Part shown: positions 6,911 through 26,718 of the stretch, one piece after another
Layout of the letters: every line of letters starts with the position of its first letter
Position numbering within the stretch: position 1 is the stretch's first letter
Source of the DNA: Mytilinidion resinicola
Taxonomy: Eukaryota; Ascomycota; Dothideomycetes; Mytilinidiales; Mytilinidiaceae
Assembly (NCBI RefSeq): GCF_010093595.1
Contig: NW_022985471.1
Location: 233,793-297,792, forward strand
Length of the DNA stretch: 64,000 nt
Direction of reading: 5' to 3'
Position numbers and translations under genes: made by a program
Notes under the pieces: generated by a model
Database searches by the model: none
Told to the model about the DNA's origin: nothing
The model's input: only the letters and a program-made list of their open reading frames with translations

Positions 6911-7000
6911 GTTAGTGAGATGGGATGAATGATTTGAGATGAAAATCGGTTTTGAAGAGGGACTAATGGTGGAGATTGCTGGAAGATAGATTGATGATAG

Positions 7001-7221: not shown

Positions 7222-7226
7222 GATAG

Positions 7227-7910
7227 ACGAGCATCTACGGGACGTTTTTCACCATAATATACATTCTACTTCATGAATACGGCTCAAGAACAAGCACTAT
7301 TACTGGCATAGTGCAAGCAACAAATCCCCTTGGTACATAGCAATCCAGCGACTATGTCACACTCAAGACGTACCTAGAGCCACGATAATAGGCTTTTGTT
7401 GTGTTGGCAGGATGTATGCACTCACAGATGGTAGGACGGAGCGTGCGTGAGGACTGAGGGTGATAGTTAAAGAAGAGTCTTACGGACGTACCATGAATTT
7501 ATATCACTTAGGTAGTACTAGCGGGGGAGAAATTCACCCTGGCTGATCTCTGTATACCCACCGTGGACTCTAAACTCTGTGCGCGGCTGCAGGGGTTCAC
7601 GGCCTTCCTGCATCGTAATGAATGCTCACATTAGAGTTCACACAATTCTTTCAGTCGTCGGCGATTCAGATATTGCAATAGCTAAGTCGAAACAATGGCG
7701 AGGCGACGGGCCGAATCTGATGGAGGAACGTTCGTTGATGAGGTGGCCGACTCGCATGTGAAGTACGTTAAGCTTATGTCAAAACGATGTCATTACTCTT
7801 GTCCGCGCGCTCATGCAGGATCTAAAGTGGCTGTTTTAAAGTAAAGCTCTGCAAGCGGTTTCTAGGAGAAGGGAAGCTTTTTCGTGCTTTCCACTTCTAC
7901 TCGCGAAAGG
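7227..7910. other. Promoter and 5' leader region of TPS1
   Basis: About 680 bp between the MITE and the TPS1 start. No coding feature is supported; the frame at 7579-7761 has no recognisable content. Confidence 0.4.
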
Positions 7911-9544
7911 ATGTCCCGCCAACATCGTGAGCCTGTCATCTTCGTTGTATCCAACCGCCTCCCTGTAACGGTCACGCGAACCGATGATAACACATACGAC
8001 GTCTCGTCATCTAGCGGAGGCCTCGTAGGAGCGCTACAAGGCTTCGCAGGGTCGACTGAATTTCGATGGTACGGTTGGCCTGGGCTGGAGATACCTGAGC
8101 AGCATCGAGCGATGGTGGAGGAGAAATTGGCAACTCAGAAGGCTTATCCTATCTTCTTCAACAAAGCTCTTGAAGATAAGCATTATAACGGGTTTTCGAG
8201 TTCGTGTGGCCCACTTTTTTCTTCATCCGGGCTGTTCCTATCCTTGATACCGTATCTTTACAGACGGGACACTAACACTAGAGGTGTTCTGCAGACAAGA
8301 TCCTATGGCCTCTGCTGCATTATCAAGCAGATCAGATCCACATAAGCAAAGAGGACTGGACAGCATATCAAGAAGTCAATCGCGCCTTCGCCGAATCCAT
8401 AGGATCAGAGGCCGAGGACGGAGACATCATATGGATCCAAGACTACCATCTACTCTTAATGCCGCAGTATCTACGCCAAGTATTCGGCGACGGCAAAAGG
8501 ATTAGGATCGGCTTCTTTTTGCATACTGTCTTCCCTAGTAGCGACTTCTTCAGAATACTACCAGTTAGAAAGGACTTACTGGAGAGCCTTCTCCACTGCG
8601 ACCTCGTCGGCTTCCATAACCAAGACTATACGCATCATTTCCTTGATTGCTGCACAAAATTTTTGTGCGTATTTACCACAACTGTGGGCTCATAATTCAC
8701 ATACTAATTGACACGTAGGCACCTCGACACAAGCGGTTCCCAGGTCATTTTCCAAGACCGAAAAGTCAATCTCCTTACTAGCCCGGTAGGGATCGACCCC
8801 AGCGAATTCCGCAAACTACTCGACCGTTCAGATGTTAAACAACGCGTACAAGGTTTGAAAGAAAAGTACAAAGGTGTCCAGCTGATAATCTCAGTCGACC
8901 GCCTCGACTACATCAAAGGCATACCCCTTCGAATCGAAGCAATGGATGCCTTCCTAACCAAGTATCCTAACTATGCCGACAAGGTCGTCCTGCTACAGGT
9001 TGTCATTCCGAGCCGCGAAGATGTTAAGGATTACCGAGGGCTCCACAACCAAATCAACCAGGCCGTCTCTCGAGTTAACGAAAAACACGGTCCTGTCGAC
9101 ATGATGCCTATCCACTCGCTTTTTAGTTCTGTGTCTAAGGCCGAGCTGGCGGCACTCTATGCCGTGTCGGACGTATGCATCGTATCATCCATACGTGACG
9201 GCTTCAACATGGTTTCGCTAGAATACGTCGTGTGCCAAAGAGAGCACCATGGCGTTCTGCTGCTATCTGAATTCGCAGGCGCGTCCGAGGTGCTAGATGA
9301 AAGCGTTTCAATTAACCCATGGGACACGGACGAGTTTGCAGACGCGATCCAGTGCGCCCTGACTATGGGGAGGGAAGAGAAGACGGCGAGGTGGGAAAGC
9401 TTAAACAAGCGTGTAGAGCAGTTTACGAGCAAGAGGTGGGGTGAGGCGTTCTTGGAATTGTTGAAGAATTCCGACCATGGGCATACTGCGCGCCATGGCG
9501 TTGCGAATGGTGCAGTTGACTGTGCGAGTTGCATGCTCGAATAG
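7911..9544 (+). CDS. TPS1: Trehalose-6-phosphate synthase
   Basis: Glycosyltransferase family 20 enzyme that makes trehalose 6-phosphate from UDP-glucose and glucose 6-phosphate in the cytosol, the first step of trehalose synthesis. Exons 7911-8199, 8295-8664 and 8719-9544 give 494 aa, close to the usual length of yeast Tps1. Visible family motifs are VVSNRLPVT near the N-terminus, SGGLVGAL, the stretch WIQDYHLLLMP, GFFLHTVFPSSDFFR, SVDRLDYIKGIP and SIRDGFNMVSLEYV. Joining the first two exons recreates the conserved NGFSNKILWPLLHY block. The sequence near QREHHGVLLLSEFAGASEVL is somewhat divergent from typical Tps1, so this could be a paralogue instead of the main copy. The frame is intact. 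Confidence 0.93.
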
Positions 9545-10226
9545 CGAAATGAGATGCTGCATGAATGGGGATTCTCGCATTGCTTTTCGGATTTAATCTT
9601 AGTGGCGTGTCTGTAGGGCCAAGAGGAAATGCGCTACCCATATTTTGACGCTTTTGACGTTCGCGATAGAGCACTCTCACTGTCCCGTTCAGGGCTGCAG
9701 CTGGTATCAAGCAAAATTTCTCTAGAATCTATTTGCCTGCAGTAAACGAACGGTAGACATCCTCTCGCGAACAACTCGAATTTCCAACAACGAAAACAGA
9801 CTCTCAACAATTAACTGTGCGTTTCACTTCTACCTTGTTAAATGTCACAAAACGGACTTGTTGCATAGCCCTAAGGTACGTAGGCATTAGGGCACACCTA
9901 TGCGGGATGTTGATGCGATGTATCGTGGATTGATGCGATTGCTTATGGTATGCCGCTACCCCAAGAAGCTGCTCTGCCTTCTAAAACTTTTAATTTGTAA
10001 GTATCTAACTGTGAATGGTGTAAGAGGCAACTAACGTATACGCATTATATCCTATTTACAGAAGAACAAGGTAAGGAAGGGAAAGGGAGCTGAAGCAGCT
10101 CAGATAATAAGGAGCATAGTCGAGGCGGTGGTCATCGGGCTGTTATGAACGGAGTCAGCCATAGACTGGCCAAGAAGAAGATCTCTAAACTCGTCTTCGG
10201 TGTGTCCGTTCCACTGATCAACCTCA
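9545..10226. other. Intergenic region after TPS1
   Basis: AT-richer sequence with no supportable gene. A short internal repetition of TTGATGCGAT occurs near 9910-9940. It forms the left edge of the decayed island that runs to about 16.2 kb. Confidence 0.4.
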
Positions 10227-11758
10227 TTATCCACCTCCGTCGGCCATTCCACGGCGTCCTCCCATCTGCTGCCCAACCTGCATAGTCTGTTGCATCGGCA
10301 GCGTGGTCATATCGCCCTTGTGGTTATTCAGCTGTGCCTGCGGTATCTGCACCGACGGCATCTGCATCCCCATCCACCCCCTTCCTCTCACTACCGGTCC
10401 CAGCCCTTGTCCCATCTCCACTCCACTCCTCTGCGGCACCATCCGCAACGAACTAGCCGCCTGCTGGAGATAATTATTAATGCGCGGATCCTCACAGTTT
10501 GCATGCCTTAGGATTTCCAACTTTAGCCCAAGACAGAAGTTCCGCAGATGCCGATATTCAGCATCCAGATTGCACTGCTGCTTCGCAAGTCTCTCGTAAG
10601 TGTTCTGGAGCTCGGCGTACTCTTCCCTCTTCTTCATGCGGCACTTCTGCGCGGCCTTGCGGTAGGCCGCGCTGGTCGTCGCGGGATTGCGGGATTTTAG
10701 AGCGCTTGGCTTTGCCTCGGCCGGTTAGGGTGGATGAGGGGGTCTGGATGAGCGGGGTTAGCGATGCGAGCAGCTTCGGCGTATATGGGTCGGACATCGG
10801 CTGGGAGTGGTTTAAAGACCTCGTATGTGAGATGTCTTTCCTCGGCCGCTCTCTTAGCGGCCTCTTCTTTAGCGGCCCTGGCAGGTTGTTTGCGGGCTTG
10901 TCTAAGGCTGACGGATGCTAATTTTCTCTTTCTTTGCAGTTGCAGCGCGTCTGCGAGATCTCGTAGCGGGCTGGGTGGGCTGGTGGTTGTGGAGCGTTGT
11001 CGTCAAGTGTGTGGTTCTGGACATTATTGTGGATGTTGACGAGCTTTTATGATTCCTCCTGGCGATGCGCTCTAGGGCTTGACTTGTGGCATCCGTGAAT
11101 GCATCGTATCGCTTATCTGGGACGTCCCAATGGCCGCACATCTGCTTGGGCGGCAGCGAGTCGGTGTACTGCGGCGTGAACTGGCCGTTGATGAATTGAG
11201 CAGAGTACTTGTCTAGATGCATATCGAACGGGCTGACGAACTGGCCCATGGTCCACTTGTCCGAGATTAGGTAGGCCACCGCCGTGTTGCCGTAGTATGG
11301 TCTGCGGTTGCTCCGCGTGCCTAGCGGTGTAAATCTGTTGCAAAGCGGAGTATCTGAGAGTAGTGAATGTTGTTGTTGTGGTGAGGCAGCAAACGTTGAG
11401 CGGCGGAAGGGGAAAAGCTGCGAAGCAGCCGCGGGGGCGACGAGGGAAGTAGGCGGGCGGGCACAAATCGCTGTCTTGTTCAAATCTAGAAGCCAAGGCG
11501 TGAGGGTAGTTTTTAGATCTGGTGGCATTGCTCGTAGCCGTCTGGATGCAGGGTATCTCTAAGCCTTTTGATTCGATCCAACAAGAATGATTTGTCGTAA
11601 GTCAGGTAGGGGTCGAGCCCCAAAGCGTCAAAGAAGTCGAGCGGCTCGAGCAAATGGTCGTAGCCCTCGTCTCCCCACGGACCCCACTCACGGCGTTCAT
11701 CGATGCCGACCATGCCGAGTAGGTAGGGTAGTAGATGTAGAGGTGAGGCATCCGACAA
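10227..11758 (-). pseudogene. Degraded bZIP-like gene with J-like N-terminus
   Basis: Fragments of one protein lie in order on the minus strand but in changing frames. From 11758: an 81-aa piece with LGLDP and a later HPDG, faintly like a J domain. Next, 11350-11060 carries WTMGQFVSPFDMHLDKYSAQ. Near 10930-10710 is a charged Ala/Lys/Glu-rich frame. Finally 10690-10227 holds the basic region and zipper (YRKAAQKCRMKKREEY, then leucine heptads and an ILRHANCEDPRI tail typical of fungal bZIP proteins). At least three single-base shifts (near 11040, 10925 and 10660-10700) are needed to connect them, and no good introns do so. The basic region has Tyr where bZIPs have the invariant Asn (before R-K-A-A). 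I call it a pseudogene; sequencing indels are the main alternative. Confidence 0.6.
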
Positions 11759-12126
11759 AGAAAGACAAGGCTCGAGTAGAAAGTGAGTGAGAATACGAAA
11801 GGTGGAGGAGCGACAATTGAATTGGAAACAATGGTCACAGGCAAAGGGTGCTTATTGGTGGGGCAAGCTTGACGGGAGAGAGAGAGGACATAGTAATCGA
11901 GCTTTGGGAGAGAAGGACGTGGCGGGGCGCAGGAGGTGAACTTATACCAGCGTGCTGTCAGCTAGGCATAAACAGAAGCGGTGAGGCCGTCCATCAGCGA
12001 GCGACCTGACTGGCTAGATTCCGTGCAACGGGGCCGCGTCGGAACAGCGCAGCTTTGGTTGAGAAGGGCCGCTGTATGTAGAAGCGAGAGAGAAGCAGTA
12101 GTATTTCTAGATAACTCTTGCGACAC
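11759..12126. other. Flank of the bZIP-like pseudogene
   Basis: No gene seen; presumed upstream sequence of the pseudogene, AT-richer than the housekeeping regions. Confidence 0.35.
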
Positions 12127-12231
12127 TGTCCGAGATCGGGTAAAGCATTGCCATTGTGCCGTAGTATGGTTGGCGGTTGCTCCGCGTGTCCAGCGGTGTA
12201 AAGCTGTTGCAAAGCGGAGTATCTAAGAGTA
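12127..12231 (-). repeat. Duplicated 105-bp fragment of the bZIP-like pseudogene
   Basis: This segment aligns without gaps to 11258-11362 inside the pseudogene, with about 17 mismatches by eye. Both copies keep related minus-strand frames (for example LRYSALQQ..YTA.HAEQP). The similarity ends on both sides, so it is a partial duplication or the relic of a second gene copy. Confidence 0.75.
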
Positions 12232-12331
12232 ACTATTTCCTGGCTGGATGTTGTATTCATCTCTCTTGCGGCCAAGAAGCTCAAAGTAGAGGCTGTAGTA
12301 GAGGGCAGAATCAGCCCTTTTTTGTGCCTTA

Positions 12332-12685
12332 TCAATTGGAAGAAGGTAGGTTGATTTTAAGGTGTTTGGAATTCGAATGGACCCAGCGTGAAACCTAGTG
12401 GATTCCTGGCATTCTCCCAGCCAATTCCTGGGCGAGATTTCGTATCATTTGATGCATAGGAGGCAGGCCTCTTTCGGAGAGGTCGTTGATGTATTTGATG
12501 AGAGCCCTAGTATTGCCAGGAGAGAGGAGCTTTTGAGAATTGTAGCCCTCAGCCTTTGACTTCGTGATTCCTCGGTACCTCCGTGAGAGCGTAGTTCTGT
12601 CAATCCCATGCTTGTTTGCAACCTCGGTATACATCTTCTTCTCCATCAAATCAAGCTCCGCGAACGCAGCTTCCATTGCATCCAT
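12332..12685 (-). mobile_element. Pogo/Fot1-type transposase N-terminal fragment
   Basis: The frame from the ATG at 12685 encodes about 96 aa resembling the helix-turn-helix (psq/CENP-B-like) N-terminus of fungal pogo/Fot1 transposases: a Glu/Lys-rich helix, then a GIDRTTLSRRYRG recognition segment and a stretch ending in ELAGRMPG. A TAG at 12395-12397 interrupts it. The same frame continues to 12332 with VSRWVHSNSKHL, which fits the usual W-x-S/T-R-F-x-x-R segment, so the TAG probably replaced TGG. No catalytic DDE part follows, so this is a relic. Confidence 0.7.
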
Positions 12686-12801
12686 TTTTGAAGGAAATCT
12701 GTATATTTTTGGTGGAGTTGTGCGGTGTCGAAGCTTGAGAGAAAAAGCGCTGAGGGGCCTCTGAGGCCGTGCACGAGGTGGTAGCGTGCACGGCCATAAT
12801 C

Positions 12802-14428
12802 AAGTGCGCTATCATGCTGTGAAGTTGTTGTTTCCACCCTTCAATTTGCACTTATTTGCCAGGTCCAAGAAGGTGTTATTCGAGGCCCGGGAGATGATGT
12901 ATTCATTCACCTCTTTGTCCTTCCTCCATAGATCAAGCAAGAACTGCCTAGCTTCATCCTTGGCTTGCCTGCTGGCGCTATGGCAGTCGTATACCTTTAT
13001 AGGATGGTTCATCCTTCTAAAGACTCGCTCAATTGGGTGCAAATCAGGTGAGAAAGCTGGGTGGTCCACAAACTTGATCTTAGAGGAGAGATGTGAGAGC
13101 TTCCTTCAAGCAGAATGGTGAAGGGAGACGTTGTCCTCAATAAGCCAGACCTCTTTATCCGGGTTTGCTTTTATACAGCAAAATAGTAAGGATAGAGCAA
13201 TAGCTTTAGAATATTGTTGGCGTACCAAGCAGCATCCATACCCTTGCCTTTTCCTCGAGTGAATACCTCATATTTGAACTCCTGCTCGGGCCTTCGTGTA
13301 TAGCGCCTTCCCTTTTGAATTCCTTGCTGCGTGAGGCGCTCATTGTCACCTCGAATCTTATAATTCACTGATTTCATGTGGTTGTACTCCCAGGTCCCTT
13401 GGATGTTGGCATTCCTTTGAGACCTCTCAGCCCTTTCCTTCGCATCCTCATTGTCTTTGATGAGCTTCTTTTCAAGCTCATCCTTCTGCTCTTGAGACTC
13501 TGGCTCCCATACAATGCAAGGCCTTGGAATGCGGTCATCTGAGCACATGGCACCCCAAAAGGAGAAGGAGAACTTGGCAGATTTCTCGGGTATTGCATAC
13601 TCATTGGCATCTTTTCCCATAGGCCTAGAGACTCTAGCTTTGCCTCCTCCAGAATGGCCAGGCCCGAATTGCTTTCGTGATTCATCTGAACAAATAATGA
13701 TGACTTTTCCTTGGGTCCTTTTGATGAGATCTTCAAGCCAGGAGCAGTGCTCAAATCGGGCTTCTTTTTGAGAGGCATTGAGGGCTGGCTTCTTGGGTGG
13801 AATTCCACGTACAATTGGCCCATGGCAGAGAGGATCCGTATGCTGATGGGCAACGCGTTCGATTAAGGATCTGGCTGCTTTCACTCCATGCTTGTGGAGC
13901 GCCGGTGCAGCAGCTTCTTCAAACCTATAGTCCTCCCATCGCAATATATCTTGGCGGATCTCATGGGATAGCTTGCTTCCTTGCTTGACCTTTGGTACCC
14001 TTCCTGGGCGCTCTGATTTGGGTGAAAGAGATGCAAGCATATCATGAAAATCCTCATTCCCAGCATCCTGCCGTGCCCGGGAGTAGATCTTTGTAGCTGT
14101 AGACTCAGAGACACCAGTCTTGGCCTCAATATGGGTGAACGGAACTTGAAAGAAGAGGTGCATTGTAATAACAGCAGCTTTCATGGCAGTAGGGGTATCA
14201 TTGGCCCCCCTGGAGCGTCCTCCAAGGTGGTGGTGGGCCATGGTGGATGAGATTTGAGTGAATGTTTACAAGGGGGAGGCGGTGAAAAGGGGCGGCTCCT
14301 ATTGGTGAAGATTCTGCTGCGCTCGGGCCTCATATTATTGGCGATCGGAATATGCTGCGAGCCGTACCCCTGCCCAAAAATTACAATAGCGAGGCCGCGC
14401 CATCGCCCTGATTTCGCAGAGCGCACTT
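12802..14428 (-). mobile_element. Tc1/mariner-like DNA transposon (inactive copy)
   Basis: The element is defined by the transposase pseudogene it carries. Possible termini are a 9-bp inverted match, AAGTGCGCT at 12802-12810 directly after the transposase stop, and AGCGCACTT at 14420-14428 upstream of its start. The match is short and I see no clear TA target duplication, so these boundaries are tentative. Confidence 0.55.
12812..14241 (-). pseudogene. Tc1/mariner-like transposase, frameshifted and with a nonsense codon
   Basis: From the ATG at 14241 the frame encodes 356 aa with an N-terminal helix-turn-helix region and the first catalytic Asp in IICSDES. Near 13170 a one-base shift is needed to continue into IKANPDKEVWLIEDNVSLHH (second Asp). 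A TGA around 13107 then follows, and the frame resumes to SPDLHPIERVF (third catalytic acid) and the C-terminus ending at 12812. All three DDE/D motifs are therefore recognisable but cannot be translated in one product. The TGA would be CGA before a C-to-T change. Family assignment to the DDE superfamily of Tc1/mariner elements is confident; the exact subfamily is not. Confidence 0.85.
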
Positions 14429-15027
14429 TCACGGTGCGACCGAATCTCGTCGCCGCACCACCACCATTAATCTATCATCGTTTCTAAAACTTATATAAGG
14501 CTAAGCCCTAATCTCACAGTCCTACTACCATGCTAGGAAGTCATCATCAACGATGGCGCTGATGTGACGCGCAAGATCGTCACGCAGGCCGGTATATCTA
14601 ACCAAGATAATAAACGATTACGGTTAGTGCGAAACAGTTACGTATGTATTATATGGTAATTACATTGTATTCTAAACTGTGGCGCGCCGGTCTAAATTCT
14701 TCAGAGCGACGCAGAAGTTCCTGCGTGGAGAACCACTTCCGCCCTCGCCTTGAGGGAACGCCAAACCAGCGCCAGTTTTGTGAGCAGCAGCAAGAAAGGA
14801 ACAGCAATGAGCTCCGGGCGCAGAGGTTTCGTCGCGAACGTGAGAGGAATGCTTAAATACACGTGTTCACCAAGCGGATAATTACCAGGAGATAACCGTT
14901 GCGTTGAAAAGCCTCAACGCCTTGCACCCCAGCCATCATCCTCCCACATGCATGAAGCCGAGCCCGGCCCGTGACCTTCCCATCAGCTGTCACCACTCAC
15001 TCTACCACCATACTATCCTCAGATCAG
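14429..15027. other. Intergenic region between transposon and SAM-domain gene
   Basis: No gene supported. A short basic, Arg/Gln-rich frame at 14644-14856 has no recognisable content. Confidence 0.35.
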
Positions 15028-15965
15028 CTAGTAGTACAATCTAAGTACGAAAATCCTAGACTCCGCAGCCTTGACCGAGTTGATGTTGCTATAGTCTTGC
15101 ATATCCGGAAGAACATTCCAGTCCGATCGCAGCTGTATATCCTGAAACTCAGCAACCATGTCTTGACCTTCTGCTAGATCGCAAACAGCTGCGTCATCAA
15201 AGATACATTCCAGACCTAACTTGTTGACTCGTACGGTTTGTATGATTTGTGAAAGGGTGACGTCGCACTTCGTTCCAAGCTTGTATAGGAACTCCTCGCG
15301 GGTGCGGTTTTTGAGATACATAGCCCGATAGTAGGGATCCTGAGACGCGTTTGCGCCGATCCTAGGCTGAACATAGAAGCAAGCAACTAAACAGTCAGTT
15401 CCTACCATTATTGAAGTGGTCGGCGTGTCATACCGGGTCTGGTGACCTGACCTGGCTGCTCCATAATTTTATCTTCAATCAACGATTGCTTGCTCACTCT
15501 AGCATCCTCATGCATATAATCCAAGATGTGTTGAGGATGCTTTCCTATCTTCAGACGTGACAGGGCATTGGTGCAGTGTGGTAGCTGTGACATTGCGTCG
15601 TTGGCTGAGATGCTGATTATACGCTCAAGTTTTCTTCGATGACCACGTTTGACCTTGAGTTGCTCAAAGTCGTTTTCGTTGATGTTAAGCATTGATTCCC
15701 AGGAGTTAAAACCATGATCAACTAGGGTTTGCCGATACTGGCTGAGGTCTAGCGATTCAAGAACCGCACAGAGGTGAAGATAAGATTGATGTACTACCGC
15801 TGCATTTTGTACAAGGTCTGAAGCGGACGGTCGTACTGGGAGTGCGATTTGTCCTAAAGACTGATCATGATGTTAGTGCAAAAAGTGTATAAATAGAATC
15901 AGGTTACTGACCACTCTTCTCCGGTCCGATAATTTTACCGCATTAGAACTCAAGTGTTGTGGCAT
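15028..15965 (-). CDS. SAM-domain protein resembling the C-terminal half of a CP2/grainyhead factor
   Basis: Three exons (15965-15908, 15853-15434, 15386-15028; introns of 54 and 47 nt) give 278 aa. Residues about 40-100 form a SAM domain: CAVLESLDLSQYRQTLVDHGF followed by NINENDFEQLKVKRGHRRKLERI. After a linker, the second half (FYVQPR..DPYYRAMYLKNRTREEFLYKLG.., then LAEGQDMVAEF) looks like the ubiquitin-like C-terminal dimerisation region of CP2/grainyhead transcription factors, where a SAM domain also precedes it. The DNA-binding domain expected upstream is absent. The start codon is the least certain part. It may be a truncated duplicate that could act as a dimerisation partner, or simply a decaying fragment. 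The family call for the second half is from memory of the pattern only. Confidence 0.6.
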
Positions 15966-16446
15966 TTTAGGCGTGGTGAAGAGTCATGTCCTACCCAATA
16001 TATTGTGAGACATATGTGCGATAGCATTCAAGTCAATGTTATAATTACTTATCTATCAAACAAGCCCTTCGCTACACTATACGTGTTGGAGCATAAGGAG
16101 ATGAGGCGCAGGCTTGTGATAGACTTCTCGTCGATTTAAATTTATTGACGTCATCGACCCGGACCCCTCTTTTGATGATATCGGCACCGGCCTCAAGGCG
16201 ATGACGTGATGCTACGCTAGATAGGGGGCTTAGAGCCAGAGAAAGTTAGGCCATAGCCCCTCCAAATCCCAAACCAGTGCATGATCCGAGGAGGTTCGGA
16301 GGAAATCCCGCGACTACTTCGGAGTCCTATTGTACGTTAAGGTTAGGCCTCAAATTTCGCGCTTTGCTCCCACCGGATGCCGTTTCTTCTCCCTCCAATC
16401 GTTGAATACGCGACGCATGCGGCCTGCATGCACTCAGCCGCCCTGA
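15966..16446. other. Intergenic region
   Basis: No gene seen. Near 16425-16470 the phrase GCCTGCATGCACTCAGCC is repeated about 25 bp apart, just ahead of the coiled-coil ORF. Confidence 0.35.
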
Positions 16447-16485
16447 AACCGCCTGCATGCACTCAGCCTCCCTGAGACTGCCTGC

Positions 16486-17034
16486 GTGTGGCTGCCCCGC
16501 GCCATCCCCATCGTTTTACTTTTCCCCGTTGCCCGCGCAGCAACGCTTCTTTTCGTGTTCGCGGCGTGGCAAATCGTGAGCAAGTACGGCGACGGTGTTG
16601 CTGGCGTTAGCGAGGAGGCGGACCAGGCTATCCGCCGCGCGGTATCGGCTGCTGAGAGCGCGCGTGAGCACGTCCGCGAAGCAAAAGGGCTGGAGATGCA
16701 AGCCATGCAGCTAGCTGCCGCGTTAGTGGACGATGATGAGACGTGGAGAGCAACTGTCGCTGCGGCGAGGGAGGTGAAAACGGAAGTGGAAGGGATGGTG
16801 AGGCAGGTGGGGCTGTTGGGGGTGAAGGTGGACAAGGTGAGGAAGCTGGCGGAGAGGGCGAAGGTGGTGGCGGAGGAGGGGGATTTGGAATTGGCGAGGG
16901 AGGTGGTGGTGAATGTGGGGAAGTTGGAGGATATGGTGGTGCAGGTGGGGGAAAAGGTTAGGGAGAGGGTGGAGAAGGTGGAGGGGTTGAGGGGGCGGCT
17001 TTGGGGGTTGAGTTTGGGCGACGGTTCTGGCTAG
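16486..17034 (+). CDS. Hypothetical coiled-coil protein
   Basis: An open frame of 182 codons ending at TAG 17034. It starts with a hydrophobic segment (IPIVLLFPVARAATLLFVFAA), which could be a signal anchor, followed by about 140 residues of Ala/Glu/Lys/Val heptad-like sequence with strong G-ending codon use. No ATG lies in frame upstream of the hydrophobic segment (the frame opens after a TGA at 16444 and 16486 is GTG), so either an upstream exon is missing from my model or translation starts at the internal ATG at 16696. No family recognised. The G-rich composition could also produce a false frame. Confidence 0.35.
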   Translation: MWLPRAIPIVLLFPVARAATLLFVFAAWQIVSKYGDGVAGVSEEADQAIRRAVSAAESAREHVREAKGLEMQAMQLAAALVDDDETWRATVAAAREVKTEVEGMVRQVGLLGVKVDKVRKLAERAKVVAEEGDLELAREVVVNVGKLEDMVVQVGEKVRERVEKVEGLRGRLWGLSLGDGSG

Positions 17035-17256
17035 GTGGAGTTGCTCAGGCGTGTATGTAGAGAGGTTGGTGGGGACTGTGGTAGAGGTGGCTAGAATTGG
17101 ATGGGAAGTTGTAGTTTGAAATGATGGATAATGTATGCAATTTCTCAAAATCTCAGACTCTAGACTTGGTGTCGAGATTCGAGTGACAACTTGGAAGACA
17201 GGCTTTCCGCCCCAGGAATCACACCGTCAAGCCGAAGACGAAACCCAAGAGTGTGG

Positions 17257-20200
17257 CTATCCCTCCTTCTTCTTAGCCTCAGCAGCCGCTAAGGGCTTGA
17301 ACAGCGTCTCAACCAGCTGGAAGAAAGTCAGTAACCCACAAACTCCATGGAACCAACCGCCAACAGCGAACGAATACTCACCCATCGGTCTAAACTCCGC
17401 TCATCACGAAACGACTTGAACTTGTCATCCATCCTGCCTGTCTGATTGTAAGTACTGCTGGTTCCTGACATTCAACCCAAAATTGTACATACCCGCAAAG
17501 ATATGCGATACGCTGGCAATGGCCGGGTTGTCCCTGAGCGTGTCCAGAAATTCGAAGGCTGCTTTCGACGACCCGACCTGGCCGATCAAGAACTTCACGC
17601 CTGCAAACCATACTTAGAAAACCGAACACAAATAATACCGTATAAACCCAAGGGGAATGAAAACGCACAGTCCCTCGGATACCCCTTCCTCTCCAACTCA
17701 TTCCCACACTCGACAATCACACTCGCCAGCGTGCCCGGGGCCTCGGGCGTCGGGCCCCCATCGGTAAGAACGGATACAAGCAGCGGCCTCTTCAGCTTGC
17801 CCACCGCGAGCGGGTTGAACACCAGCGGCTTGAGGATACGCTCTCGCAGCGTCGTGCCGATGGGCGTGTTGCCCTTCGGATCGGCCAAGTCGAGGGCCCG
17901 CCCGATGCCCTCGAGGTCCAGGGAGGGGGACTCGTTGGTTGTCTGGTTAATGAAGCGGAGGGCGACGCCCTCGCGGTCGGGGAGGATGCGGGTCATGGTC
18001 CGCGCAATGCGCAGGGCGAGGCTCTTTTGGTTTTCCCATCTTTTTTCAGCCGTGCCTTTTGCGGTGACCATGGAGCTGCTGTCGTCTGTTGCGTTGTTAG
18101 TGACACGACACACATGAAGGTGTAATGAAATGGAAAGCTAGGCTTGGTTACCGCAGTAGATGACCTGCTGATGCATGGTCACTTTGATGGTCTTGGGGAG
18201 GACTTCTGGGCTGCCCAAGTCTGTGGTGGGGTCGTTGGCAAGGTCCACTGCCTTTTTCGCTATGTCCTGCATGAACTCCTTGTTGTCCTTGAAGAAGGCC
18301 TCCAGCGCAGGCGTGTCTTTGACGTAGGTGTCGACGTGTTTGAATTTCTGGAGAGTGTACATATGCTCAATCACAGTGTCTTCCTTAGTAGTTTGCATCG
18401 GGATCGAATAGATGCTCCAGTCAATCGGCGTTGTTGATTCCACCTCTTCATTCCGTGGTCCTTTCTCCAGAAAGTTCTCCTGCAAAATCCCATGCATGTC
18501 CGCTTCATTCACCTCGTCTCCTTGAACAAATTCGAATTCGTTGTTCAGAGTACTTCTCTTTCCAGGAGCCCTGTCGCTTGTGCTTGCTTGGGAGCTTGGG
18601 AAGGCATGCACGTCTCCAACTGCGAGTTTCTCCGTAGACAATCGCGGTGTGAGTAGGGCCAGAAATTGCAGGTGATCGGCGATGTGTTTCAGCATCATAG
18701 TCACAGTATTGGCTGTCTTTTGTGTCCCACACTCATCTGCCTTCACAACTTCCATGTTGGTTGCGGGCGGACCCGCTCCCTCGCCTGCTGGCTCGGAATC
18801 CAGCTTCGTGAAGTCAAATTGTACAGATCTTTTGTCCTTGCTACGGCTAGATGGTGTCTTGGATTCCATCTTTTTAGAATCAAGCAGCAGTGTTTCTGGC
18901 GATTCGTTGGAGGTTTGCGGTGCGGGTACCACCGTGGATTGATGAATGCCGGTACGAGCATCTCCGGATTCTTCGAGAGGTAGGCAACATAGGGGACAAA
19001 TATCTACAAGTTGACCGAGATTTGCTGTCGCTTGAGGGTCGGGAGCTGTTTCTTTATCGCGGTTTGGAATGCTTGGGCCTCGTGACCAGAAGACGCCATG
19101 ATCACGCTCCATGTGACCTGTCCACTCAGATCGGCTGGCAAAAGTTGGGGACTCCGAACAAGTGTTTGAAACGCAGGGAAACGGAAACAAGTCGCCGTTT
19201 ACATGGCGCCTGTATCATGTAAGTTAGCATCGAAAGACGGAGGTCTTCACCGGCATGCCAACATCAGAGAAGCGACTCACCTCCACCAAAATTCGTCCTC
19301 GAAATCTGCCTTAGAGAAGATCTTTCGGCAGAGATGACAGGGCTTTCGATCCTCTTCACCTTTGAACTGGGGAGGCTCAGGGAATTTCGCTCCGCTTCTG
19401 AGAACGGTTGATGCCCTAGCTCGGCTTAGTACTGGCATCTCACCTTCCGCCGGTGGTATGACGAGGTTGGATCCTGCATTCGATGGAACAGTTCCAGACA
19501 GGAACGTGGTACCTTTGGACACCTTGCTCTCTTCGGGTTTTGGCAGAGCCGAAGCGCTGTCCTCCATTGATCGCAGTCGTTGTGGCGGTTCCATAGCATG
19601 CGAAGGCGTTGATCTCGGTTGCGTATGCCGAGGCTGCCCATCGCGGCGACGGTCAGCGCGCAGTTTCTTGTCGTGAAATTTCCAGTATAAAAGCCTCGTG
19701 TATCGCTTCATCATTGATTTGCTCAAATGCTGACGAAGGCTTTCAGAGGCTTCCGGATAGAGACCATTGACTGCGAGCATCGTTTTCACCTCAAATGACG
19801 AAATCTCCGCGGGCTTCCTTGCTCCGAAAGCTTTGACTCGGGCATCGAAGGAGGACGTAGAAGACTGCCGAATATAGATTGCGAGTCGATCGAGCTCGTT
19901 TATCGACTTCTGGATACCGCTGAGTTCGACTTTTCGTCGATCCACGCCGTCATCTGAGGATTCATCCGACCCTGCGTCATCGGGGTCGACTGTGGCTAGC
20001 ATTCGGTGAGCTGGCAATCATAGAATATCAATATCTCACCCTACCTTACTTTGAATAAGATTTATGTTGAGCATGTCCAAGACCAAAAGAACGAGGTCTT
20101 GATATCGAGGATGACGCCTCAGGCGCTGGTCGAGACTTGCCTTTCCCCCAGCGAAGACGCCAAGATAAGCCGTCCAGTCGACAAACTTGGCCTGAAGCTT

Positions 20201-20365
20201 CCGTAAAATTTCTGCATATTCTTCCTCTCCATGTGATTCCATGAGTCGGACACTTTTTGAGAAGTTCGACTCGCAGTCGGTGGCCTTGGTCGAAATGGGC
20301 TCATCGTCCTCGTGCGGGGGAAGATCTTTAGCCGTGGCAATCGTTGGATTCCAGACAGTCGCCAT
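17257..20365 (-). CDS. Zinc-finger and von Willebrand factor A domain protein
   Basis: Seven exons (20365-20050, 19989-19281, 19209-18152, 18085-17669, 17600-17493, 17437-17382, 17316-17257) give 907 aa in one frame. The first about 220 residues are helical (LDRLAIYIRQSS and KRYTRLLYWKFHD are typical of a fungal N-terminal region found in zinc-finger and NLR-like proteins). Residues about 320-450 contain fungal C2H2-like finger pairs: CHLC..F..WWRRHVNGDLFPFPC, then W-x-x-H-M-x-x-D-H-G-V-F-W and CPLCC. The C-terminus is a vWA domain with a complete MIDAS: D-D-S-S-S (695-699), GNTPIG with Thr near 768, and TDGGPT. vWA domains bind ligands through a metal ion, often as adaptors. Divergent from the subtilase gene, 406 bp apart. 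Function unknown; a role with the neighbouring protease/gasdermin pair is inference from position. Confidence 0.85.
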
Positions 20366-20771: not shown

Positions 20772-23700
20772 ATGTTACCAGAGGTTTTGGGCCCTAGCGG
20801 AGGCATAGGGGAGACCGCCGCTTGGAGGTTGATCTATGGGCTGCACCAGAGTAGAGATCGCTTCAGCTATGATGGAGGACCTGATGAAGTCGGCGTCCGT
20901 AGCACCCGAACACACGAGCTCCGGACTGCCCTCCGCGATCTCGACATCCAGATTCGCACGACATTTACGATTCTGCAACTTGACTTGTTGCTTCAATGGG
21001 AGTCAGAACGGGAAGACGACGCGTCTCAATCAAGTTTTGAATCGGAATCAGATGACGAATCTCTTCAGGACACCGCTAGCTCAGACCGAGACGATGCATC
21101 TTCGCATTCAGGCGTGGAATCTCGCTGCATCTCTCCGACCGAGGAGCGTTTCGATATACCAAGTCATGGGCCATCTCCGTCAGACAACCAAGCATTGTCG
21201 CTTCTTCGAGACTTGTGCTCCCTTCTCGAAGTGCGGGTTAATCCCCTTCTGATCCCCATCCAGCCAGAGGATATCGACCAAGCTTCAGGCTATCCAAGAC
21301 TGGCGCGTCTCATTGGATATGTTCAATCACCACAAATTCATCCCCAACGTCTGGAATTCATTCCGATCCCGGGATCTGCAAATACACCCTTCCTCTTCAA
21401 CGTTACGGAAGACGGTGCGACCGCGACTGCCTTCGTCGCGCTCTGTGATCCGGTACAAAAGCCTCCTAGAAAAAGGGCTCGACAGCGAATGCTAGCAGAA
21501 GTCGGTTTTATGAGGGATCACTTCTTGTACTTCAACAACTTTGTCAATAGTCTACAGATTTCGATCGGATCTCTTGACAGCCTCGCTCCGCGGCCAAGTC
21601 AGAGCTCCACCTCCACCACAGGGTCGTTCGCCTCGTTCGCGCTGCTCCAAAAGTTTCGGCAGCAAACGACCGCTGCATTCCGCGCTATATTTTCACAATT
21701 CGGATCATGCGCTCATCGCGAATCGATAAAGCAGCACAAGATCCTTCTACAGTTACCTGGTTGGGAGGTCGCTTCCGACTGGAATCTGCCGGTTCAACTT
21801 TTCTTCACTAGTTGCCTACTTGAAGATTGGCAGCCCGCAAGCATGTATTTTCTTCAGTAAGTCGGGTCTTCGCATGGTGTGTATGGTATCAGACAGCTAA
21901 GTTCAGCTACTTTCGGAAACTGACATCGCAACCGACAGGTCCGAAAAGAACGATGCATACAAAAAGCAAAAGCTCTGCAAGGCCCTAAGTAGTGCCCACG
22001 ATAATGACAGGGACCTTGAGTTCTACGTCTCGGAAGATTCTGAGAGCACTAATCCTGGCGAAATACCAGTTCATATCCCTATTGGTCCAAAGAGAGGTCG
22101 GAGATATGGCGACAGCTTCCCAGTCGACAACCTCTGTACTCTGATCAAGCATGGCTACTTTGCAAGGAACCGCACAATGGAGTTGTTATATAAGGCTGGT
22201 GAGAACGCTGCTGTCATGGGAATTGACCAGCGCAAGACTCTCGCTGTCAAGCTCGTTCTCGGCATGATGCTGTCCATGGATTCCGATTACATCATTGGCA
22301 CCTGGGATCCAGCACGCATTCATTTCTTGAAGCCCATGGACACGGAACTCACACCATTTGTCTCAATCTACGGGAATGTGGACAGTTTAAGCCGTTGGGG
22401 CTGTCCGCCCCTCGCTAAATTAAACATCTCTGGCGACTTTGGGGATGATGACGACGAGCCGGATTCGTATCCCTTGCTGCCGTTCACTCTCTTGGCCAAG
22501 GCGCTATTGCAGATTGCGTGCGGAGAGCGTCTCAAGGATCTTAAAATTTCTTACGCATCGAGAAAAGCTTTTCTCGGCGGATGGAAGGAGCTTCGGAGGT
22601 TGATTGAGCTCTATCTCAAATCAAAAACCTGCGAAAATGATGTGGACCGAGAGACGTTGCCCTTTCTATATGCAGCTCTGAAATGCTTGGATTTCCATAC
22701 AAGGTATCAGGTGCGCCTTAAGTCGGCGCGGTCAAACCATCGCATAGAGATTGCGTGGCAGCTGGTGTTCGACGACGTCATCGCTCAGATTGACAGCAGC
22801 TTGAATTTGGGGGAGTTAATCCAGCCTGGCACTGATGCTCTCACCAAGGAAGAAGCCATTCCCGTCGCAGGTCAAACAGCGGCTGAAGAATCCTCTGTCC
22901 TTAGAAGCGTCGGGGGCATCACAGCTCAGCCCCAGGTCGCATTATTCGATGGGGAGAATTCCGTGAAGGACTCAACGTAAGACTTTCCCGAAAAACTATT
23001 GTGGTTCATAAAGCTAGCCTGGCAGCGCTAACTATGGGCCCAAACGTTGCAGAGAAGTCCAAAGGGCTACCTTCTTCTTCGAGACACTCGAAGAATTCCA
23101 CGCCTCCTATTCGCGCTTTGTCACTGATCGTGTCAAGGACGACTCAGGAGGAGAACCACCACGGCGGATCCGCATAGCAGTTCTCGATACTGGAATCGAC
23201 TTCCGACATTCCGGGCTAATAGAGGCGAAGAAAAAGGGACGCGTGAAGAGGGAATGGTGCCACAGCTGGGTTGGCGCCGGAACCGACGTAGAAGATGAGG
23301 ATGACGAGTTGCACGGAACGAACTGCGTTTACGTTCTCCACAAAGCAGCGCCTGAGGCAAACATATACGTCGAGAAAGTGTTTCGGAGCAACAGCTTTAG
23401 GATCTACCAAGCTGAGAATATTGCTAGGGTAAGCCTTTCCACGAGCGGTCGCGAGATTGGACTTGTGAGTGCGGGAGAAGCTGGGGTGCGAGGTTTGGGA
23501 CATTGGCAATTTGTCGCTTAGTAGGCTAACGTTTACGACATATCAGGCTATCAAACATGCAGTGGAGACATGGGACGTAGATATTATATCGATGTCATTC
23601 GGACTGAGGCCTCCGGTACCTCGGAAAGACGGAAATCACGCCGAGGAAAATCTAGCCTTACAGGACTACCAAGATCTTGTCGACGGTATCCAAACCGCAA

Positions 23701-24248
23701 TTCGAAATGCCTCGGTCCAGTCGCCTCGGATCATGTTTGCGGCCGCCTCCAACAACGGCAAGAATGAAAAGCGTGCGTTCCCGGCGAAGTACGAGCCGTG
23801 GGTTATATGCGTCCATGCTTCGGACGGGAAGGGCAGTGATGGCGGCATCAATCCGCCGACGGAGCGTGGTGCTAACTTCATGACGCTCGGTATGGGTCTG
23901 AATCTAATGGAAAGACAGTGGACGCATGAACAGAAGGGACGGACACCGATATACAAGGAGGTATATAAATCTGGTACGTCGTTCGCAACGCCGATAGCCG
24001 CTGGCATTGCAGCCACAGTCCTCGATGTCGCTTCCCGAGTGAGCGCGATCAAGGACCGGGCGAAGGAGAAGCTTAGAAGACCCGAAGAGATGCAGAAGAT
24101 GTTATGGCTCATGTCGAGTCCGAAGCACGATCTCGGCAATCAATATTGCTTTTTGGCTCCGTGGAATCATTGGGAGAAGCACTGGCAGGCAAATGAGACT
24201 AAGTCCCGAATAGCCTGGGACTTAATCAACGATCTGTTTGAGGCGTAG
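20772..24248 (+). CDS. DUF7580-like protein with C-terminal subtilisin-like S8 protease
   Basis: Exons 20772-21856, 21939-22976, 23053-23428 and 23547-24248 give 1066 aa. The frame opens at a TTG at 20757, but the first ATG is 20772. Residues about 1-700 are a fungal helical region with an acidic Ser-rich insert; the segment from RTMELLYKAGENAAV to SDYIIGTWDPARIHFLK resembles DUF7580, common at the N-terminus of fungal defence-type proteins. Residues about 745-1040 are a subtilase with an intact triad: Asp753 in AVLDTGID, His795 in ELHGTNC, Ser978 in KSGTSFATP, and the oxyanion Asn in AAASNNG. There is no signal peptide, so it should act inside the cell. Its 3' end faces the gasdermin-like gene 165 bp away. 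Known fungal gasdermins are cleaved by a neighbouring subtilase (HET-Q2 on HET-Q1), which suggests the same job here. Confidence 0.88.
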
Positions 24249-24413
24249 GGAATTAAGAAGAGGGCGATTACAGTGAGGACTAGTGAAGTACGATAAAGAA
24301 ACACACCCGAAATGGTTTGATTAAGAGCTTCCCCAAAAATTCTCGCGCTAAAGTGGTTTCCGTTTCTCAATGTGCCTCGTGTCTCGACACAGCTCGAGGC
24401 CGATCATACACGA

Positions 24414-25244
24414 TCAGGGCCAAACCCAAGTGATGGGGTTTGCTTCTCCCAATTGAGTCTCATCCGCGATGGTCTGCCCGGTCGTGTCGTCAGCCGACTG
24501 TAGGCCGTCGAGCACGTCCATATTCTTTCCTTTGGGGTCGCCTAGCGTCGCCCCGACGACGTCGTGTTCATTGTGTCTCGTGCCCTCCTTGTCCCACCAG
24601 ATCTTTCGCACGCGAATGCCGAGGATGAATGGCGTCGAGCCATCGAAACTCGAGTAGAGACTCTCTTCACTCTCGTAGGCCCCGCTCGTGCCGCCCGTAG
24701 TGCCCGTCACAGCAGCCTGGCCACTAACCTTGTTTTTCTTGGACTTGATCTTGGAGAGCTTGGCTCCCTCGGTCCACATCAGGCCGGTAACTAGGTAGAC
24801 GGGCTCTTTGAACTTGTTTTCCCTGATGTAGAAGGCGACGCCGTTGACCTCGAGGGCCTGTTTCATGTATTCGGTCGTAGGGATAAAGTATTGGACGAAC
24901 AGCTTCTCCACCGCCAGAGTCTCATCGTTTTCGCGCCTACGCAAAAAGGAAAACATAGCGCCTAGTCCGTTCCAGCCGAATATCTTGGCCCAGATGCTGC
25001 CCTCGAGGCCCCGAAGCTCCTTCAAGCTGCGGTTGAAGCCCATCTTCTCCATCGGGTTGTCGCGGGGCCAGCGCTGCGATTCGGGAACGAGGACGGTAGC
25101 ACCAATGTCGAGTGGAGTGAGGACACCATCGATATCGAGGGTGTGGAGGACGGAACCCAGCTGCAGATGGCCGTCGGGCGGCGGGGCGATGCTGAAGTCG
25201 GGACAGAGGTGGAAGGAAGGCTGTGGACTAATGGATCCAGCCAT
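24414..25244 (-). CDS. Gasdermin-like pore-forming protein (fungal RCD-1/HET-Q1 type)
   Basis: A single uninterrupted exon of 276 aa from the ATG at 25244. No signal peptide. The pattern matches what I know of fungal gasdermin homologues: an N-terminal DFSIAPPPDGHLQLGSVL block (16-33), a central SIWAKIFGWNGLG segment, an amphipathic strand PVYLVTGLMW (148-157) comparable to the VYxVTE strand of animal gasdermins, and FILGIRVRKI (206-215), followed by a polar, acidic tail of about 60 residues. Fungal gasdermins are activated by removal of a short C-terminal tail, which frees the pore-forming part to permeabilise membranes and kill the cell. The length fits the family (about 250-280 aa) and the adjacent gene encodes a subtilase, the usual partner. 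No domain search was possible, so the family call rests on motifs, size and context. Confidence 0.72.
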   Translation of the reverse strand: MAGSISPQPSFHLCPDFSIAPPPDGHLQLGSVLHTLDIDGVLTPLDIGATVLVPESQRWPRDNPMEKMGFNRSLKELRGLEGSIWAKIFGWNGLGAMFSFLRRRENDETLAVEKLFVQYFIPTTEYMKQALEVNGVAFYIRENKFKEPVYLVTGLMWTEGAKLSKIKSKKNKVSGQAAVTGTTGGTSGAYESEESLYSSFDGSTPFILGIRVRKIWWDKEGTRHNEHDVVGATLGDPKGKNMDVLDGLQSADDTTGQTIADETQLGEANPITWVWP

Positions 25245-26090
25245 TTTGACTCGAAAGATTGCGGAGATATATCACTAGCGTTCGAGATGTAAGAGATTAC
25301 GATCGTGCCACTGGTATATACGCAAGTGCATGAAAATTTGTTAGGTGTTAGGTTTACTCAACTGACAGTTGGTAGACAAAGATGAGGGACGGTCGCTTAC
25401 ATATACATACGCAGAGTTTTCCACCTAAACTACACGCTGCGCCAAATAGAGGCCCAACGTGCCTCAGTAGCGAATGATTTAGAAGCAGCGAATGATTTAG
25501 AAGCAGCGAATGATTTAGAAGCAGGGGATGGTCAGCTGGGCGGAAGAGAGCAATCAGGCTGAGGTTATGTATAACAGGCGTGCCTATAGTAGATCAATAC
25601 ATCACGTATCCTTACATCACGTGCACGGCGGCCGAATATCAACCGGACATGGAGAATTCCACAGCGAACGTATCCTGCGCCATCATCCATCAAAACCCAT
25701 CTCCAAATGATAGAATGAACGCCATATCCATCGTCGCTTCGAATGCTTCAACGATGTGTAAGAATAGGGTGACGGACGGGCCTGCTGTGTGTCGATATGA
25801 CCACTGGCGATCTAGGAGGTGTAAAGCAATTGCACAATACATTCCCGAGGACCACCCTGAGTCAAAGATGCTATCGAGCGTGAAGTCTATAATTCTATGA
25901 AAGAGAAACTTGACTATAAGTGAGTTTGAGGCGCGTTTGTTGAGTCGTCAAGCGGTGAGCTGGAAGCCTTCTTCCTCTTCACGCTGAGTCTGAGTTGGCT
26001 TTCATGTCATCAAGAGAGCATGAAGAAGCACAGTAACCAAAAATTCGCTGCTTTGGAATTGATCTCCCACTCCGTATCTTTCTGGTGAGG
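25245..26090. other. Intergenic region after the gasdermin-like gene
   Basis: Contains the presumed gasdermin-like promoter and an 18-bp triple repeat. The frame at 25580-25900 starts without a nearby ATG and shows no recognisable content. Confidence 0.4.
25469..25522. repeat. Three perfect tandem copies of an 18-bp unit
   Basis: The unit AGCGAATGATTTAGAAGC is repeated three times without change (25469-25486, 25487-25504, 25505-25522). It is about 225 bp upstream of the gasdermin-like start codon. Possibly a recent slippage product or a promoter element. Confidence 0.9.
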
Positions 26091-26718
26091 CAGCTGCCTG
26101 CTCCATAACTCATCAGGTCGACGACCTAAGTATTTATTCGACCGCAGCTCCAACTTCATCCATCACCTTTACACCACACTTTCAGCTTCTTCAACTCCTC
26201 CACTTCTTTCTGATACTGAGGTAAGACTTCGTATCTATGTGACTAGACAGCTGCCTGCTCCGTAGCTCTTCAGGTCGACGACTCAAGTATATATTCGACC
26301 GCAGCTCCGACTTCATCCATCACCTTTACACTACACTTTCGACCGCTTCAACTTCTCCACTTCTTTCTGCTATTGAATCAAGACTTGGTTCTTACCTGGC
26401 CAGGCAGCCGCCTGCTCCATAGCTTTGCCGGTCGAAGACTCAAGCATATCTTCGACCGCAGCTCCAACCTCCTCCGTCACTTTTACACCACACTTTCAAC
26501 CTCCTCAACTCTTCAACTGTTCACTGCTTTCTGGTAACAGTCCTGGCCCTGACCGGCTTGGCAGCCGCCTGACTCCAGCTTTCTTTCGCTCGACGGCTAG
26601 AGTATATCCTCTACTCTTCTTTCGACCTCTTAGGCTTCGCCTCTAACCTCTTTGACCGATTGCAACCCACGATCATCCGTTCCTGCTTCCGCTTTCCTAA
26701 AGCGGGTCCCAATCCTGT
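26091..26718. repeat. 157-bp-period tandem repeat, three clear copies and a diverged fourth
   Basis: Copies begin with CAGC(T/C)GCCTG at 26091, 26248, 26405 and 26562, always exactly 157 bp apart. The inner anchor TTCGACCGCAGCTCC recurs at 26137, 26294 and 26451. The fourth copy keeps its start but diverges internally. The period is not a multiple of three and stops are frequent, so the array is not a coding repeat. It ends just before the ATG of the F-box-like gene at 26732, so it occupies that gene's promoter or leader. Confidence 0.88.

What the first reader, a model, noticed from the sequence alone, without database searches (positions are those of the whole stretch)
20772..25244. Gasdermin-like gene next to an intracellular subtilase: a candidate regulated cell death pair
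Seen: a 276-aa single-exon protein with fungal gasdermin-like blocks (PVYLVTGLMW, FILGIRVRKI, an N-terminal PPPDGHLQLGSVL region), convergent at 165 bp with a gene whose C-terminus is a complete S8 protease (Asp753, His795, Ser978) without a signal peptide. Known: in Podospora, HET-Q1 (gasdermin) is cleaved by the subtilase HET-Q2, and fungal gasdermin genes frequently neighbour protease genes. Inference: the DUF7580-like helical part senses a signal or partner and the protease frees the gasdermin by trimming its acidic tail.
Basis: partly seen in the sequence, partly recalled or inferred. Interest (0 to 1): 0.88.

Follow-up and report, generated by a model that had tools for sequence, protein, structure and literature searches.

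The report
Three-gene fungal gasdermin death cluster
A fungus carries a pore-forming death protein (a gasdermin), a protease likely to switch it on, and, newly noticed, a third neighbouring gene with a swappable end that looks like the sensor, recalling the sensor-protease-pore layout of animal pyroptosis.

Summary

The C-terminal end differs between them (ankyrin, kinase, NACHT and others). The vWA-like end here is a recent copy (97.9% DNA identity, 1.87 kb), most simply from an ankyrin gene on contig C14. A diverged three-gene cluster with the same layout lies on contig C18.

Best reading: modular receptor, then DUF7580-protease, then gasdermin. Cleavage, sensing and killing are inferred, not shown. 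A kinase-like DUF7580 fold is inconclusive.

The parts
24414..25244 (-). fungal gasdermin gene, 276 aa, single exon
24417..24584 (-). acidic C-terminal tail, residues 221-276: low-confidence linker 221-241, then a segment with mostly conserved DD (252-253) and a near-terminal Trp (273)
   Evidence: pLDDT below 50 at 221-241; conservation and charge
20772..24248 (+). protease gene, four exons (20772-21856, 21939-22976, 23053-23428, 23547-24248), 1066 aa, no prodomain among its Pfam hits
   Evidence: splice model and translation; Pfam; identical to NCBI BDZ99DRAFT_527942 except for 50 extra N-terminal aa
21645..22806 (+). DUF7580 domain, aa 292-651 (interrupted by intron 1)
   Evidence: Pfam PF24476, E 7.5e-51
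23168..24032 (+). S8 subtilase domain, aa 747-995 (interrupted by intron 3), Asp753/His795/Ser978
17259..20365 (-). third gene, seven exons, about 924 aa: zinc-finger N-terminal core (about 1-632) plus vWA-like C-terminus; NCBI BDZ99DRAFT_577208 (909 aa)
   Evidence: splice model; homologs and linkage; UniRef calls it VWFA-containing, Pfam finds no vWA or zinc finger in it
16489..18357 (.). segment 97.9% identical (1833 of 1873 columns) to contig C14, carrying the vWA-like C-terminus, its introns, its 3' flank and a shortened piece of an ORF that is longer on C14
20366..20771 (.). 406-bp shared upstream region between the third gene and the protease (head-to-head)
   Evidence: coordinates

Best explanation
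The locus is a three-gene regulated cell death module. In the resting state the gasdermin is held off by its acidic C-terminal tail (about 55 aa). The third protein is a modular intracellular receptor: a conserved zinc-finger N-terminal core joined to an exchangeable sensing end, here vWA-like. On recognition it engages the DUF7580 part of the second protein, which activates the attached S8 protease. The protease cuts the gasdermin in the flexible linker, about residues 221-246, removing the tail, and the freed N-terminal domain forms plasma-membrane pores. Shown by sequence or model: the gasdermin fold, the protease domain and triad, linkage of the genes in several species, the acidic tail, the differing C-termini and the recent vWA copy. 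Inferred: receptor function, the order of signalling, DUF7580 as coupling domain, cleavage, pores and death.
For: Gasdermin identity. Protease. Gasdermin-protease linkage: of 20 named close protease homologs, 11 lie on a contig of the same length as a listed gasdermin homolog, 9 of these with locus tags one or two apart. Distances of the two proteins correlate over 12 pairs (Mantel r 0.65, p 0.0006); shared ancestry alone can give this. C-terminal swap: the alignment to the window's protein stops at residue 568-632 in 9 of 9, followed by ankyrin, kinase, NACHT, weak esterase-like or unrecognised ends. Diverged three-gene cluster on C18 with the same topology. Zinc-finger/DUF7580 head-to-head pairs elsewhere: 3 of 4 other N-terminal loci of the genome-wide search; chance about 1.4e-7 in a rough calculation. 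Acidic tail: 77 of 77 rows.
Against: No functional data. 9 of 20 protease homologs and 1 of 9 third-gene homologs had no partner in my lists; the lists hold 90% cluster representatives, so this is weak evidence. For 4 of 9 third-gene homologs the link is a shared contig length on contigs of 0.27 to 6.8 Mb, not shown closeness; one of them (P0131) bears another strain's tag than its protease partner (P0095). The own-genome gasdermin on C20 has a DUF7580-S8 neighbour with no third-gene hit in the 1.5 kb held upstream of the DUF7580 match, but that stretch may not reach past the gene itself. The own-genome gasdermins on C2 and C10 sit near S8 genes without a DUF7580 hit, so the module is not universal. 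The third protein here has no NTPase or known ligand domain and no Pfam zinc finger or vWA hit. No profile similarity was found between the N-terminal parts of the protease and of the third protein.
Confidence: 0.57

Rival explanations
1. Ordinary two-gene cluster of the HET-Q1/HET-Q2-like kind: the DUF7580 part of the protease is itself the sensor, and the third gene is a neighbour with its own job.
For: This is the published picture: about 80% of fungal gasdermin genes lie near a protease gene, with the sensor fused to the protease (passages of PMC10197012). Closeness of the third gene is shown by tags in only 4 of 9 homologs.
Against: 8 of 9 third-gene homologs share at least a contig length with a gasdermin or protease homolog; the layout recurs on C18 in the same genome; the third protein carries the swappable end.
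Confidence: 0.29
2. Cleavage-independent gasdermin of the RCD-1 kind, activated by a variant partner from another strain; the protease is linked for another reason.
For: RCD-1 is the closest solved structure, and Trichoderma atroviride has two gasdermin homologs two tags apart (TrAtP1_012388 and _012390).
Against: An acidic tail with a mostly conserved end is kept in the family, as is the protease neighbour. HET-Q1, also matched, is cleavage-activated (PMC10989679 passages).
Confidence: 0.06
3. The three genes serve regulated release or secretion through transient gasdermin pores, not death.
For: A review names secretion as a role still to be explored (PMC12881547 passage).
Against: Both characterised fungal gasdermins drive death (passages). 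Nothing here separates the two.
Confidence: 0.07

Closest known systems
HET-Q1/HET-Q2 of Podospora anserina
   Same: Gasdermin of similar length (278 aa there, 276 here) beside an S8 protease; a short C-terminal tail (40 aa removed there) (passages of PMC10989679); profile match to the HET-Q1 pore chain
   Different: HET-Q2 is 388 aa, too short for a DUF7580 part like this one; the passages describe no third gene; the relation to HET-Q1 is remote
RCD-1 of Neurospora crassa
   Same: Best structural and profile match
   Different: Activated by two allelic variants meeting, without cleavage (passage); here a protease is linked and an acidic tail is conserved
Q2L multidomain proteases clustered with fungal gasdermins
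   Same: S8 domain fused to a further domain, beside a gasdermin gene (passages)
   Different: Domains named in those passages are ANK, TPR, WD40 and NLR types; DUF7580 is not named there. A review mentions 'kinase-like' fusions, which could be the same thing
Mammalian inflammasome pathway (NLR - caspase - gasdermin D)
   Same: Proposed three tiers with a separate sensor, protease and gasdermin
   Different: Protease is a subtilase, not a caspase; the sensor core is a fungal zinc-finger-like protein; the genes are clustered. Likeness of logic only
Fungal NLR/HeLo gene clusters such as nwd2/het-S
   Same: Receptor and executioner encoded side by side (passages)
   Different: No amyloid motif was sought here; executioner is a gasdermin

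Membership tests
gasdermin family (fungal) | sequence relation to known gasdermins | tested here: met
   profile of 80 sequences: RCD-1-2 E 4.4e-10, RCD-1-1 1.1e-8, HET-Q1 1.1e-4; the single sequence found none of them and Pfam had no hit
gasdermin family (fungal) | gasdermin N-domain fold | tested here: met
gasdermin family (fungal) | pore formation and cell death | not testable with these tools
   needs experiment
HET-Q1/HET-Q2-like gasdermin-protease cluster | adjacent S8 or CHAT protease gene with intact active site | tested here: met
   S8 with Asp, His and Ser in place
HET-Q1/HET-Q2-like gasdermin-protease cluster | linkage conserved between species | tested here: met
HET-Q1/HET-Q2-like gasdermin-protease cluster | protease removes the gasdermin tail | not testable with these tools
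   needs experiment
S8 subtilase | fold and catalytic triad | tested here: met
NLR receptor (third gene of the window) | central NB-ARC or NACHT NTPase | tested here: not met
   no such Pfam hit in the window's third protein at E <= 1 or in P0125 at E <= 10; homolog P0133 has NACHT and the C1 relative a sub-threshold NB-ARC
vWA domain (C-terminus of the third gene) | vWA profile match | tested here: inconclusive
   no Pfam hit in the window's segment or P0125; sub-threshold vWA hits in homologs P0141 (0.026) and P0143 (0.0019); UniRef names P0125 VWFA-containing
protein kinase fold (DUF7580) | kinase fold by structure or profile | tested here: inconclusive
   model topology looks kinase-like to me; PEAK3 pseudokinase is the best kinase row in Foldseek at E 0.041; hhalign probability 0.3%; no kinase catalytic-domain family among the Pfam hits of A3; PDB profile search gave no kinase
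HeLo-like domain (N-terminus of DUF7580 proteins on C1, C8, C11) | HeLo profile match | tested here: inconclusive
   PF14479 at E 0.07, below cut-off, in C1 only; none in the C8 or C11 segments scanned

The most novel reading that the evidence does not exclude
Fungi have a plug-in death-signalling system built round DUF7580. A zinc-finger receptor gene with interchangeable sensing ends stands head-to-head with a DUF7580 gene. The DUF7580 protein feeds either a HeLo-like killer in the same chain or an S8 protease that frees a gasdermin, so necroptosis-like and pyroptosis-like killing share one receptor platform. Receptors gain new specificities by copying whole C-terminal modules between loci, and the window shows one such recent copy.
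Probability: 0.38. Interest if true: 0.82.

Novelty: new variant of a known kind. Interest (0 to 1): 0.62.

Why it matters
Published fungal gasdermin systems are described, in the review passages I saw, as two-gene units with the sensor fused to the protease. A separate, modular and recombining receptor would make the fungal pathway three-tiered, closer in layout to animal pyroptosis. It would also give a concrete handle on an open question stated in PMC12881547: what the fungal sensors detect. A DUF7580 link between HeLo-like and gasdermin killing would tie together two death pathways that those passages treat separately.

Tried and rejected
Single-sequence searches for gasdermin relatives failed: PDB phmmer's only hit was a COP9 subunit at E 0.96, Pfam gave nothing, and NCBIfam only a RecU row at E 0.047, far below its cut-off. 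Only the family profile and the fold showed the relation.

DUF7580 as a pseudokinase: the predicted topology suggests it to me, but the profile search of the PDB gave only a COMMD-like protein at E 0.073, hhalign against three kinase sequences gave probability 0.3%, Pfam scanning of 10 segments gave no kinase catalytic domain, Foldseek's best kinase row had E 0.041 in the PDB and 0.087 among viral models. The whole-chain VIA list was filled by subtilases, so DUF7580 was barely tested there. Left open.

Homology between the N-terminal part of the protease and that of the third protein: none seen. The protease N-terminal profile found only itself among the held loci. No leftover of an older third-gene C-terminus was found at window 6000-19000 at E <= 0.01. 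A first splice model of the third gene gave a frame full of stops and was replaced. In the notebook I first logged a second vWA copy at 11261-12357; that was an offset error, corrected in entry 6. I did not test amyloid motifs, strain polymorphism or expression.

The primary paper on HET-Q1/HET-Q2 (Clave et al. 2022) is not held; I know it only through reviews, so it may already list three-gene cases.
Full report
What is there. The window lies in a fungal genome (G000, contig C35 of 423,135 bp). The protease is identical to a Mytilinidion resinicola protein on a contig of the same length, apart from 50 extra N-terminal residues in the NCBI model, so I take that as the organism.

Tail. Residues 221-241 have pLDDT below 50. 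77 of the 80 rows keep more than 30 residues beyond position 220 (3 dropped), and 77 of these 77 tails are net negative (mean -8.6). The column of Trp273 is Trp in 66 of 69 rows with a letter; Asp252 and Asp253 are Asp in 65 and 68 of 77. HET-Q1 (278 aa) loses 40 residues after Phe238 (passage of PMC10989679). The last HET-Q1 residue in the profile alignment (228) falls at profile position 235, near window residue 231, so the cut, if there is one, should lie near 231-246. That is inference.

Linkage of the pair. I judged linkage from the listings: equal contig length, and locus tags. Of 22 close protease homologs (42% identity or more, P0086-P0107), I set aside the window's own (P0086) and one unnamed sequence (P0096). 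Of the 20 left, 11 lie on a contig of exactly the same length as a listed gasdermin homolog: P0088, P0090, P0091, P0093, P0094, P0098, P0100, P0102, P0103, P0104, P0107. Nine of these have locus tags one or two apart (V8C40DRAFT_231593/231594, V8F33_012602/012603, MAPG_07109/07110, RB595_002191/002192, N0V84_011131/011133, FSARC_7143/7144, TrAtP1_012387/012388, SGCOL_001368/001369, NW768_004182/004183); P0090 (65-kb contig) and P0100 (2.35 Mb) match by length only. The nine without a partner may be missing only because the lists hold cluster representatives. P0107 has DUF7580 without S8 in its gene model. Distances of the two proteins correlate (12 pairs, the window's and these 11; Mantel r 0.65, p 0.0006), which linked inheritance alone would also give.

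A third gene. The gene at 17259-20365, minus strand, starts 406 bp from the protease, head-to-head. It had no convincing Pfam hit; I call the core zinc-finger-like from its CxxC...HxxxH pattern, by eye, and because Pfam sees sub-threshold C2H2 fingers in its relatives on C8, C11 and C15. Of its 19 database hits one is the window's own, 9 match its N-terminal part (query residues within 19-632) and 9 match only its C-terminal part (634 onward). Of the 9 N-terminal homologs, 4 have tags one or two from a gasdermin or protease homolog: P0129 (FQN57_002521/002522), P0130, P0134, P0138 (SLS63_010511/010513). Four more lie on a contig of the same length as a listed partner, P0127, P0131, P0132 and P0133, on contigs of 0.27 to 6.8 Mb, which does not show closeness; P0131 and its partner P0095 bear tags of different strains. 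P0126 has no match. Two species give the complete series in the window's order: FSARC_7143 (gasdermin), 7144 (protease), 7145 (third); RB595_002191, 002192, 002193. What follows the conserved core differs: ankyrin repeats (P0130, P0131), protein kinase (P0132, P0134), kinase plus ankyrin (P0138), NACHT (P0133), a sub-threshold esterase hit (P0126), nothing recognised (P0127, P0129). The 9 C-terminal-only hits carry the window's C-terminal end on other proteins; 7 of the 9 have ankyrin repeats in their precomputed Pfam domains. The end is vWA-like by UniRef's name for P0125, by a recalled DxSxS-type motif, and by sub-threshold vWA hits in two of the homologs scanned (P0141, P0143); Pfam finds no vWA in the window's own copy. 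In Trichoderma cf. simile a 453-aa model (P0069) joins a gasdermin to a zinc-finger-like segment that is 46% identical over 170 aa to the C18 third protein; this may be a real fusion or a gene-model error.

A recent swap. Window 16489-18357 is 97.9% identical (1833 of 1873 columns) to contig C14, introns and 3' flank included. On C14 this end follows an ankyrin-repeat ORF (Ank_2 E 5.4e-13), the commoner architecture, and the shared stretch there ends inside an ORF that goes on for another 225 bases but is cut short in the window. The simplest reading is a copy from C14 to the window, joining the third gene in frame near residue 633. I found no remnant of an older C-terminus.

The same genome elsewhere. 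Searches for gasdermins found, besides the window, places on C18, C2 (521 kb), C10, C20, C6 and a degraded one on C2 (1.24 Mb). S8 hits lie near the ones on C18, C2 (521 kb, about 3.5 kb away), C10 and C20; of these C18 and C20 also have DUF7580. The C6 one has part of a calpain-family gene next to it; the degraded C2 place was not examined. C18 repeats the whole layout: gasdermin-like ORF (L033 1338-2231, +; profile E 2.2e-8), convergent DUF7580-S8 gene (minus), and a divergent gene (+) whose N-terminal part matches the third-gene profile (E 1.6e-9).

Zinc-finger and DUF7580 pairs. A genome-wide search with the third protein gave four other N-terminal loci; three (C1, C8, C11 at 791 kb) are divergent from a DUF7580 gene within about 3 kb, and one (C15) is not. 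With about 26 DUF7580 places in 47.1 Mb, chance is roughly 1.4e-7 for 3 of 4, a rough figure. Looking only around DUF7580 genes added C18, C11 at 516 kb and a weak one on C4; that set is biased by the way it was found. The partners end in NB-ARC (C1, sub-threshold), Macro (C8) and kinase (C11 at 516 kb). No S8 hit lies at these C1, C8 and C11 places in the genome-wide list, whose counts are lower bounds. The DUF7580 proteins on C1, C8 and C11 (791 kb) begin with a hydrophobic MSG-type helix that I take from memory as HeLo-like; Pfam supports this only at E 0.07, for C1.

How it likely works. Receptor core plus exchangeable sensor, to DUF7580-S8, to gasdermin, as set out in Best explanation. 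The steps that rest on sequence are identity, linkage, tail and swap; the signalling order is inferred from which part is constant and which is swapped.

Known or new. That most fungal gasdermin genes lie near protease genes, often S8, is published (passages, not whole texts, of PMC12881547, PMC10197012, PMC10989679). Those passages speak of two-gene units with the sensor in the protease; PMC12881547 mentions two- or three-gene clusters for fungal death pathways in general, its explicit three-gene example being an amyloid one, and the words 'zinc finger' do not occur in it. PMC9815663 passages mention NLRs with S8 or CHAT next to gasdermins; 'zinc' and 'C2H2' do not occur in it. I found no description of a linked zinc-finger-like receptor gene in these passages or in the listings of searches, but the primary 2022 paper is not held. 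Hence a new variant of a known kind.

Noticed in passing
L070 (G000:C6, 3441 bases around 785250-785690): A gasdermin-like gene (SVYMVTGVKVAKG block, one in-frame TAG) lies next to part of a calpain-family cysteine protease gene (Pfam C2, E 1.3e-8). No held paper contains both 'fungal gasdermin' and 'calpain'..
   Followed up: partly
L031 (G000:C2:516500-526400): Another gasdermin gene (minus) diverges from an S8 protease region preceded by an ORF with TPR repeats (TPR_12, E 1.2e-8): the published architecture, in the same genome.
   Followed up: partly
16447-17034: Shortened ORF that is longer on contig C14; it came along with the copied vWA-like segment.
   Followed up: yes
25469-25524 and 26088-26577: Tandem repeats upstream of the gasdermin gene: an 18-bp unit 3.1 times (100% matches) and a 157-bp unit about 3 times.
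   Followed up: no
P0013 and P0083 (Trichoderma atroviride TrAtP1_012388 and _012390): Two diverged gasdermin homologs two locus tags apart, beside the protease homolog TrAtP1_012387; this might allow an RCD-1-like two-variant arrangement.
   Followed up: no
protease homologs P0093-P0096 (three named Magnaporthiopsis or Gaeumannomyces, one unnamed): No HGT motif was found in these four, and three of the four have CGTS instead of SGTS; activity there may differ.
   Followed up: no
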